Shown here piece by piece: positions 3,300 to 4,459 of a DNA stretch of 64,000 nucleotides. The position numbers were made by a program, and so were the translations under genes. The DNA comes from Bordetella sp. LUAb4. GTDB taxonomy: Bacteria; Pseudomonadota; Gammaproteobacteria; Burkholderiales; Burkholderiaceae_B. The stretch is taken from assembly GCF_021325795.1 (NCBI RefSeq), contig NZ_JAHPZX010000002.1, forward strand, positions 620,001 to 684,000. Direction: 5' to 3'. The first letter of the stretch is position 1. Every line of letters starts with the position of its first letter. The notes under the pieces were generated by a model. That model saw nothing but the letters and a program-made list of their open reading frames with translations, did not search any database and had not been told where the DNA came from.

Positions 3300-4076
3300 A
3301 TGGCTCCCGTTCACTCCCAACCTCAAACCACCATCAACCAAATCGGCGCAAGGGTACGCGACATCCTTGGGGATACGCCGCACTATCTTTCCCGCGATGA
3401 CTTCGTGTTGCGGAGGATTCTGAGAGATTGCGATGGGTTGATGATGGCCGATCCCGTACAAGGCCATCTTGCGACCGCCATGGCGCTTCAGCTGTGTGGC
3501 GATGAGCAGGGCGTACGGCATCACTTCACCAGCGCCAAACAATTGACGCCGGACTCCGACGGGCAGATCACCCACCTCTGGGCGCAGGCCTCCGCAAATC
3601 TGGGACTGTTCAGCGAATCGCATCGAGCGTTGGCTGACAGCCTTAAAGCCGAGTCGGGGTTCTTCCCATACCGGACCGGCTTGGCTATCACGGTAGGCGC
3701 GTTTCACCTGCTCTTTGACCGGCTCAACAAAGCCGTGCGCATGAACGTCCCTGTTCTCGACAACTTTCCTCTGGAAAAAGCCCGTCAGACTCTCTCCGCG
3801 CTGGATAGCGAACCGGCGTCAGACGAAGACGTTGCAGCGATGCTAGACGTGGCTGGCGGTGTGATGCGCGACCGTAAGATGTTCTACCTCGACCATGGCC
3901 CCAGATGGGACATCCTGCCAGAGGCGGGCATACACCTCGTGCATTTCGCCTTCCGCGTTCAAGGGAGTCCTGCCGAAGTAGCCGATATGAATGTCGAGCT
4001 AGCCACGCGAACGGCCGAGCGCGTAGACCGCATAGCCCTCTCCTTCCATGTCAGTTTCACGGGGCAGCGCGCATGA
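3300..4076 (+). CDS. TPR-like helical protein, partner of downstream HEPN protein
   Basis: A 258-residue soluble protein with no signal peptide. Residues about 52-120 read as degenerate tetratricopeptide-type helices (GHLATAMALQLCGDEQGVRH, then ASANLGLFSESHRALADSL). The C-terminal third is predicted alpha/beta (GIHLVHFAFRVQG, RIALSFHVSF). The stop overlaps the next ATG by 4 nt (ATGA), so the two products are probably made together and may act together. The ribosome binding site is weak. Lower GC than the core genes and a position in a variable region suggest horizontal acquisition. The exact function is unknown; a regulatory or antitoxin-like role toward the HEPN protein is inferred from context only. 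Confidence 0.6.
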   Translation: MAPVHSQPQTTINQIGARVRDILGDTPHYLSRDDFVLRRILRDCDGLMMADPVQGHLATAMALQLCGDEQGVRHHFTSAKQLTPDSDGQITHLWAQASANLGLFSESHRALADSLKAESGFFPYRTGLAITVGAFHLLFDRLNKAVRMNVPVLDNFPLEKARQTLSALDSEPASDEDVAAMLDVAGGVMRDRKMFYLDHGPRWDILPEAGIHLVHFAFRVQGSPAEVADMNVELATRTAERVDRIALSFHVSFTGQRA

Positions 4077-4459
4077 GTACTCACAGCGAACAGATCTTTA
4101 CTGCGGGCGAGAAGGTTCTCAATGCCGCCGATTGCGAAGCAGACCTGCGCGCGGCGATAGGTAGGTTCTACTATTCCGTCCACCATCAAGCGAAGGCATT
4201 TCATCGGAAGCTCAAGCTTCCCGGCATGGTAAAAATGGGCGGAGGTAGTCACATCGAACTATGTTCACAACTGATGTATCCGACGATCCCGCCTACCGAC
4301 CCACTCTATCTAAAGTCCAAAAGACTCGGCGTTCTTTGCAAAGCTCTGTTGACAGAAAGAATCCGGGCCGATTACAGACTTGACGAAGACATCTCCATCA
4401 AGGACGCAAATGGGTCGCGTGATCTCGCCACAGAGGCGCTGAAGATCGAACAACAATAA
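4073..4459 (+). CDS. HEPN-domain protein (128 aa)
   Basis: The protein fits the small four-helix HEPN fold (the family with R-x-YY near the N-terminus and RxRADY near the C-terminus). Visible hallmarks are AAIGRFYYSVHHQAKAFH at 28-44 and RIRADYRLDEDISIKDA at 96-112. R31 and H37 give an R-x5-H spacing like the HEPN ribonuclease motif, although in this subfamily the catalytic pair can lie elsewhere. Known HEPN proteins act as RNases in toxin-antitoxin and defence systems, or as inactive scaffolds. The start at 4073 overlaps the upstream stop (ATGA). The gene ends 4 bp from the convergent truA stop with no terminator between. The usual MNT nucleotidyltransferase antitoxin is absent. Confidence 0.65.
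   Translation: MSTHSEQIFTAGEKVLNAADCEADLRAAIGRFYYSVHHQAKAFHRKLKLPGMVKMGGGSHIELCSQLMYPTIPPTDPLYLKSKRLGVLCKALLTERIRADYRLDEDISIKDANGSRDLATEALKIEQQ

What the first reader, a model, noticed from the sequence alone, without database searches (positions are those of the whole stretch)
3300..4459. Two-gene TPR-like + HEPN operon in a variable region
A TPR-like protein and a small HEPN protein overlap by ATGA in a low-GC accessory segment next to truA. HEPN proteins are frequent RNase effectors of toxin-antitoxin and anti-phage systems. The usual MNT partner is replaced here by a larger TPR-like protein, so this may be an uncommon or undescribed HEPN module. R31-x5-H37 and RIRADY are the visible motifs. 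That it is a defence system is inference.
Basis: partly seen in the sequence, partly recalled or inferred. Interest (0 to 1): 0.7.

Follow-up and report, generated by a model that had tools for sequence, protein, structure and literature searches.

The report
Phage-borne TPR and HEPN gene pair
Two overlapping genes encode a likely RNA-cutting toxin of the HEPN family and a larger partner protein that probably restrains it; similar pairs turn up in phages, so it looks like an undescribed kind of phage-carried competition or defence module.

Summary
In detail: a 258-aa gene (3300-4076) overlaps a 128-aa gene (4073-4459) by ATGA, in an 11-kb island beside truA that two sister genomes lack. The small protein is HEPN-T (UPF0332/AF0298-like); the large one is TPR-like by a confident model, with a C-terminal alpha-beta-beta-alpha-beta domain, CTD. 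R31-x5-H37 is not the active site: H37 is not conserved. H60 and R96-xxx-D100-Y101, the alternative HEPN-T site, are. MNT, the usual partner, is absent. TPR-type partners accompany 33 of 80 loci from genomes and 63 of 73 from viral contigs; the nearest relatives are viral contigs. Of five phage records hit, four were opened and three carry the pair. Six paper searches did not turn it up. Best reading: a temperate-phage toxin/neutraliser (abortive-infection-like) module in which the CTD restrains HEPN and TPR senses. Toxicity, RNase activity, binding and defence are inferred. Against: 21 of 30 TPR-CTD loci opened from a phylum search show no HEPN-T gene beside them (three cut by contig ends), and bacterial neighbours show no clear defence-island signal.

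The parts
3300..4076 (+). TPR-like partner gene (258 aa): TPR helical hairpins about residues 8-147, helix 158-169, then the CTD
3822..4073 (+). C-terminal alpha-beta-beta-alpha-beta domain (CTD, residues 175-258), the part shared with partners that lack the TPR region
   Evidence: residues 151-258 modelled alone, pLDDT 92.1; hhalign to 8 short partners E 6e-10; beta versus gamma groups E 2e-6
4073..4076 (+). ATGA overlap of the stop of the first gene with the start of the second
   Evidence: sequence; 31 of 96 TPR-type relatives have a 4-nt overlap
4073..4459 (+). HEPN-T protein (128 aa), probable RNase effector
   Evidence: family-profile matches to 2hsb and 9xbd; weak PF05168 matches in 4 of 9 family members, best E 0.037
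4250..4252 (+). codon of H60, probable alternative catalytic histidine in the helix 2-3 insert
   Evidence: H in 31 of 32 genomic and 62 of 62 viral TPR-type relatives; aligned H in 2hsb and 9xbd
4358..4375 (+). RIRADY motif (R96 to Y101): position of the HEPN motif, with D in place of H
   Evidence: R96, D100 and Y101 in 32 of 32 and 62 of 62; motif position from PMC3710099
1..4467 (.). window part of an 11.1-kb island between tRNA-Val(gac) and truA; it continues upstream of the window to about -6662
   Evidence: flanks lie about 160 bp (G303) and 690 bp (G300) apart in sister genomes; tRNA; terminase and IS21 genes upstream

Best explanation
The pair is a temperate-phage-type accessory module of two genes. 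The second gene makes a HEPN-T protein that, as a dimer, cuts RNA with a non-canonical site (H60 with R96/D100/Y101; the dimer is assumed from other HEPN proteins). The first gene, coupled by the ATGA overlap, makes a partner whose C-terminal CTD binds the HEPN protein and holds it inactive without any nucleotidyl transfer, while its TPR part senses a trigger, most likely a protein of an incoming phage. On triggering, the HEPN protein is released, RNA is cut and the infected cell stops: an abortive-infection or toxin-antitoxin logic. Shown here: gene order, overlap, family assignment, conserved residues, TPR and CTD folds as predicted, correlated divergence, presence in phages. Inferred: toxicity, RNase activity, binding, direction of control, trigger, defence.
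For: HEPN-T membership with the alternative active site conserved. Partner upstream and close: 74 of 96 TPR-type pairs overlap and 19 more have 0-20 nt between them. Correlated divergence. CTD is the constant part: it also occurs with 8 short partners lacking TPR and in 119- and 98-aa ORFs upstream of HEPN (E 8.5e-7, and a weak 0.012). Phage-borne: 63 of 73 viral-contig loci are TPR-type; phages PG1, 10N.286.54.E4_PE001 and ST405-OXA48phi1.3 carry it; among 144 neighbours of 54 viral pairs, integrase and repressor families are the commonest named ones. The closest relative, L176 (49% and 54% identity), follows a gene that reads like a CI repressor and is linked through L224 to the L168 neighbour that matches repressor PHROGs. 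One genome has a TPR-CTD gene 9 nt before a protein with the DUF4209 HEPN domain, a family that PMC3710099 lists as keeping the motif. A prophage HEPN RNase with defence activity (Tha) is precedent (PMC11087260, passages).
Against: No functional data. The canonical Rx4-6H is absent, and HEPN domains without it may not be RNases. Of 30 TPR-CTD loci opened from a phylum-wide search, 21 show no HEPN-T gene beside them; in three of these the contig ends within about 160 nt, so 18 of 27 with room, and 15 of the 21 match the CTD profile at E 1e-3: the partner family also exists alone. Phage YP3 has the HEPN protein with no recognisable TPR partner. One relative (G046) has S for D100 and N for R31. 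TPR-type HEPNs are not one clade in the tree (at least 8 changes forced by supported branches, short alignment). At 38 bacterial loci only seven PADLOC names appear among 144 neighbours, each model in one protein.
Confidence: 0.55

Rival explanations
1. The TPR-CTD protein is not a neutraliser but a required subunit: it recruits the HEPN protein to a target (ribosome, tRNA or a phage protein), and only the complex is active.
Confidence: 0.22
2. The HEPN protein is a non-catalytic nucleotide- or RNA-binding domain, and the pair is a phage regulator (lysogeny or late-gene control) rather than a toxin module.
For: The canonical Rx4-6H motif is missing; [quoted passage not shown] Pairs lie next to repressors and integrases or among late genes.
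Against: H60, R96, D100 and Y101 are nearly invariant over very diverged sequences, unlike a decayed site. The place in the three annotated phages differs each time.
Confidence: 0.15
3. It is an ordinary HEPN-MNT toxin-antitoxin system whose nucleotidyltransferase is encoded elsewhere.
For: Both belong to the HEPN-T/PF05168 sphere; PADLOC PDC-M05B models match up to 6 of 57 relatives, best E 2.8e-5; PDC-M05 is a nucleotidyltransferase plus a HEPN protein (PMC12988326 passages).
Against: No NTase match in the window's partner or 8 relatives; MNT-paired relatives form one clade apart (20 rows, support 100/96) and differ at R26, which is R in 94 of 94 TPR-type and 1 of 18 MNT-type sequences. The rest of the genome was not searched for MNT genes.
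Confidence: 0.04

Closest known systems
HEPN-T family, UPF0332/PF05168 type (AF0298, PDB 2hsb; PDB 9xbd)
   Same: Sequence family, R-xxx-D at the motif position, histidine in the helix 2-3 insert
   Different: Listed as stand-alone or fused to MNT, or in sacsin (PMC3710099 Table 1); here with a TPR-CTD partner
HEPN-MNT toxin-antitoxin (type VII; candidate PDC-M05)
   Same: Two adjacent genes, partner first, small HEPN second
   Different: No nucleotidyltransferase; MNT-paired HEPNs are a clade apart; D in place of the motif H
LA2681 HEPN family, 'Fused to TPR, and in operon with TPR' (PMC3710099 Table 1)
   Same: HEPN next to TPR
   Different: LA2681 is listed as keeping Rx4-6H; no LA2681 model among the Pfam matches of the 9 HEPN members scanned
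Tha of Staphylococcus prophages (PMC11087260, abstract and passages seen)
   Same: Prophage-borne HEPN effector; a possible model for triggering by an incoming phage protein
   Different: Tha-1 is one 301-aa protein with canonical R265-x4-H270; no TPR-CTD partner
PADLOC HEPN_IX
   Same: 37 of 57 HEPN members match at E up to 0.1, best 2.5e-6
   Different: The window protein has no match. That HEPN_IX belongs to a retron type is recalled, not checked

Membership tests
HEPN-T (PF05168/UPF0332-like) | Sequence-profile relation to solved members | tested here: met
   57-member profile: 9xbd E 3.6e-11, 2hsb E 1.1e-9. The window protein alone has no Pfam match at E up to 10, and 4 of 9 members match PF05168 only weakly
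HEPN-T (PF05168/UPF0332-like) | R kept, D for H at the motif, plus conserved H in the helix 2-3 insert | tested here: met
   definition from PMC3710099. Helix positions are taken from the alignment to 2hsb; the HEPN fold was not predicted here
HEPN-T (PF05168/UPF0332-like) | RNase activity | not testable with these tools
   needs bench work
HEPN-MNT toxin-antitoxin (type VII) | MNT nucleotidyltransferase partner | tested here: not met
   No NTase family among Pfam matches of the window's partner or 8 relatives; MNT group is a clade apart
HEPN-MNT toxin-antitoxin (type VII) | Canonical Rx4-6H motif (kept only in a subset of MNT-paired HEPNs, PMC3710099) | tested here: not met
   R96-xxx-D100-Y101 instead; the 18 MNT-type relatives in that call also have D
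Two-gene toxin-antitoxin organisation | Partner gene first, close to the HEPN gene | tested here: met
   74 of 96 overlap, 19 with 0-20 nt gap, 2 larger, 1 not scored. Only upstream partners were looked for
Two-gene toxin-antitoxin organisation | Toxin toxic alone, neutralised by partner | not testable with these tools
   needs bench work
LA2681 HEPN with TPR | Conserved Rx4-6H | tested here: not met
   D100 in 94 of 94 TPR-type relatives; family feature from PMC3710099 Table 1
LA2681 HEPN with TPR | LA2681 sequence family | tested here: inconclusive
   No such Pfam match among 9 members; I did not check that Pfam holds this model
Tha | Single protein with C-terminal HEPN and R-x4-H | tested here: not met
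   Two proteins, D in place of H; Tha features
Anti-phage defence system | Protection against phage | not testable with these tools
   Indirect support only: occurrence in phages

The most novel reading that the evidence does not exclude
The TPR-CTD protein is a general, exchangeable sensor and brake for HEPN RNases: the CTD docks HEPN proteins (HEPN-T, and in one genome a protein of the distant DUF4209 HEPN family), while the N-terminal part is swapped (TPR, short or none) to sense different triggers. Temperate phages spread it as an exclusion cassette, and solo TPR-CTD genes are orphan brakes or antidotes.
Probability: 0.3. Interest if true: 0.75.

Novelty: new variant of a known kind. Interest (0 to 1): 0.6.

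Why it matters
[quoted passage not shown] A phage-borne relative in which the modifying enzyme is replaced by a TPR-CTD protein would mean control without AMPylation, and would give a compact two-gene system for testing how TPR sensors gate HEPN toxins.

Full report
OBSERVATION. The two ORFs are as described: 3300-4076 (+, 258 aa) and 4073-4459 (+, 128 aa), sharing ATGA. Neither window protein alone matches Pfam, PADLOC or NCBIfam at E up to 10, so the assignments rest on relatives.

THE PAIR IS REAL AND CONSERVED. In 300 genomes of the order, 8 have a match to the HEPN protein and 5 to the large protein, counting the window's genome. Of those 8, seven have the adjacent pair (the window, G007, G033, G119, G106, G124 and G221, the last twice); G078 has only a 74-aa frame and no partner was seen; G046, found through the large protein, also has the pair. 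In 369 genomes of the class, 11 match the 9-row HEPN profile: besides the window, G487 and G580 have the pair, G484 and G629 have only 119- and 98-aa ORFs upstream that match the partner's C-terminal part (E 8.5e-7 and a weak 0.012), and six weaker hits have other upstream ORFs, several reading like MNT. In the window's genus 1 of 6 genomes has it. A scan of genome contigs kept 80 of 91 loci, 33 with a TPR-type partner; a scan of viral contigs gave 73 loci, 63 with one. Of 96 TPR-type pairs, 31 overlap by 4 nt, 43 overlap otherwise, 19 have a gap of 0-20 nt, 2 a larger one and 1 could not be scored. HEPN and partner distances correlate over 66 non-redundant pairs (r = 0.56; 0 of 2000 permutations).

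WHAT THE HEPN PROTEIN IS. Family profiles match UPF0332 AF0298 (2hsb) and a HEPN protein (9xbd): E 5.7e-5 and 6.6e-4 with 9 rows, 1.1e-9 and 3.6e-11 with 57 rows. Anantharaman et al. 2013 (PMC3710099; section 5 part 1 and section 6 read, other passages seen; [quoted passage not shown] In the window protein this corresponds to R96-xxx-D100 (with Y101) and H60. R96, D100 and Y101 are kept in 32 of 32 genomic and 62 of 62 viral TPR-type relatives, H60 in 31 of 32 and 62 of 62; H37 in 0 of 32 and 1 of 62 (after dropping four short ORFs). In the 13-row set not chosen by the helix-2 pattern, R26, H60, R96 and Y101 are invariant, D100 is 12 of 13, R31 12 of 13, H38 11 of 13, and H37 occurs only in the window (some counts read from the alignment by eye). 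R26 separates partner types: R in 94 of 94 TPR-type, 1 of 18 MNT-type. In the HEPN tree MNT-paired members form one clade (20 rows, 100/96), TPR-type members do not form a single one (8 changes forced by supported branches; few columns), and the window's nearest rows are viral-contig loci L176, L174 and L172.

WHERE IT LIVES. In the window's genome, 11.1 kb (window -6662 to 4467) lie between tRNA-Val(gac) at -6807 to -6731 and truA; in G303 and G300 the same flanks are about 160 and 690 bp apart; in three other congeners the left flank is inverted relative to truA and was not used. The island holds a terminase-small-subunit match (E 2e-8; the protein also matches Achromobacter phage CF418P1 at 40% identity), a weak terminase match and IS21 genes, so it looks like a decayed phage island; no phage-integrase family was found in the 10 ORFs scanned (one of them outside the island), the one integrase-core match being the IS21 transposase. 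Five phage records hold the HEPN protein; four were opened. Three carry the recognisable pair: Pseudomonas phage PG1 between the tape-measure and DNA-circularisation genes, Vibrio phage 10N.286.54.E4_PE001 beside the P2-like gene A, Klebsiella phage ST405-OXA48phi1.3 a little upstream of the tape-measure gene. Yersinia phage YP3 has HEPN without a recognisable partner. For 54 viral loci (19 of 73 left out as near-copies or fragments) 144 neighbours were scanned: integrase families match 8, a repressor family 6, head and tail families several (first 25 of 300 families shown). In L176 the pair follows a gene that reads like a CI repressor (my reading, supported only through its similarity, by way of L224, to the L168 neighbour that matches repressor PHROGs), a place like that of lambda rexAB (recalled).

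AGAINST A SIMPLE STORY. At 38 bacterial loci (TPR-type and other partner types), 144 neighbours gave seven PADLOC names at E 1e-10 (RmrA, RmrT, RtcR, mad1, mad3, mad8, capP), each model in one protein, and the Pfam families shown (25 of 86) are mostly metabolic or regulatory with 3 integrases: no clear defence-island signal, though no control set of loci was run. In a phylum-wide search 121 of 398 genomes match the TPR-CTD profile at E 1e-8, many being plain TPR hits; of 30 loci opened, chosen from the full-length matches, 9 have HEPN-T next to the gene (one, L249, has the same coordinates as L123 and is probably the same locus) and 21 do not; three of the 21 (L254, L257, L263) are cut by the contig end within about 160 nt; 15 of the 21 match the CTD profile at E 1e-3. 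So the partner family also exists alone. In G335 a TPR-CTD gene is followed 9 nt later by a 606-aa protein with the DUF4209 HEPN domain (E 1.5e-23), and the sequence RNKLAH is visible in it; a single case, but it puts the same partner beside a different HEPN family.

MECHANISM AND NOVELTY. Best reading: an RNase toxin (HEPN-T with alternative site) restrained by the CTD of a TPR sensor, spread by temperate phages, acting as exclusion or abortive infection. Family, order, residues, predicted folds and occurrence in phages are shown; toxicity, binding, trigger and protection are inferred. It differs from HEPN-MNT in lacking the nucleotidyltransferase, from LA2681 HEPN-TPR in the motif, and from Tha in being two genes. 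Six paper searches and passages of PMC12988326, PMC13092281, PMC9122126 and PMC11087260 gave no description of this pair; supplements were not searched, and PMC13092281 reports four validated HEPN systems whose operons I did not see. I rate it a new variant of a known kind.

Noticed in passing
L103, L107, L116, L121, L122, L127, L149, L153, L155 (upstream ORF of HEPN): HEPN-T genes of Planctomycetota, a cyanobacterium, a Clostridiales MAG and others are preceded by small 103-204-aa ORFs, neither MNT nor TPR by eye, that share a strand-helix pattern by eye; possibly another neutraliser family.
   Followed up: partly
L069:9482-12190 (G335): TPR-CTD gene followed 9 nt later by a 606-aa protein with a DUF4209 HEPN domain.
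   Followed up: partly
L254-L269, L271, L274-L277: TPR-CTD genes without HEPN-T seen beside them (three cut by contig ends), sometimes in the same genome as a HEPN-linked copy (G670, G714, G738); possible orphan antidotes or a separate role.
   Followed up: partly
L273:583-2790 (G707): Two tandem TPR-CTD-like genes upstream of one HEPN-T gene.
   Followed up: no
L079, L080 (Alcaligenaceae): HEPN-T paired with a 281-302-aa partner not matched by the 33-row TPR profile; perhaps another sensor part.
   Followed up: no
L005:47-1174 (G221): One of the two pairs in G221 lies near a gene that reads like the P2 late control D protein (my reading, no search), so probably a prophage copy.
   Followed up: no
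window -6662 to 4467 (L156 and window): 11-kb island beside tRNA-Val with terminase and IS21 genes, no att-like repeat found.
   Followed up: partly
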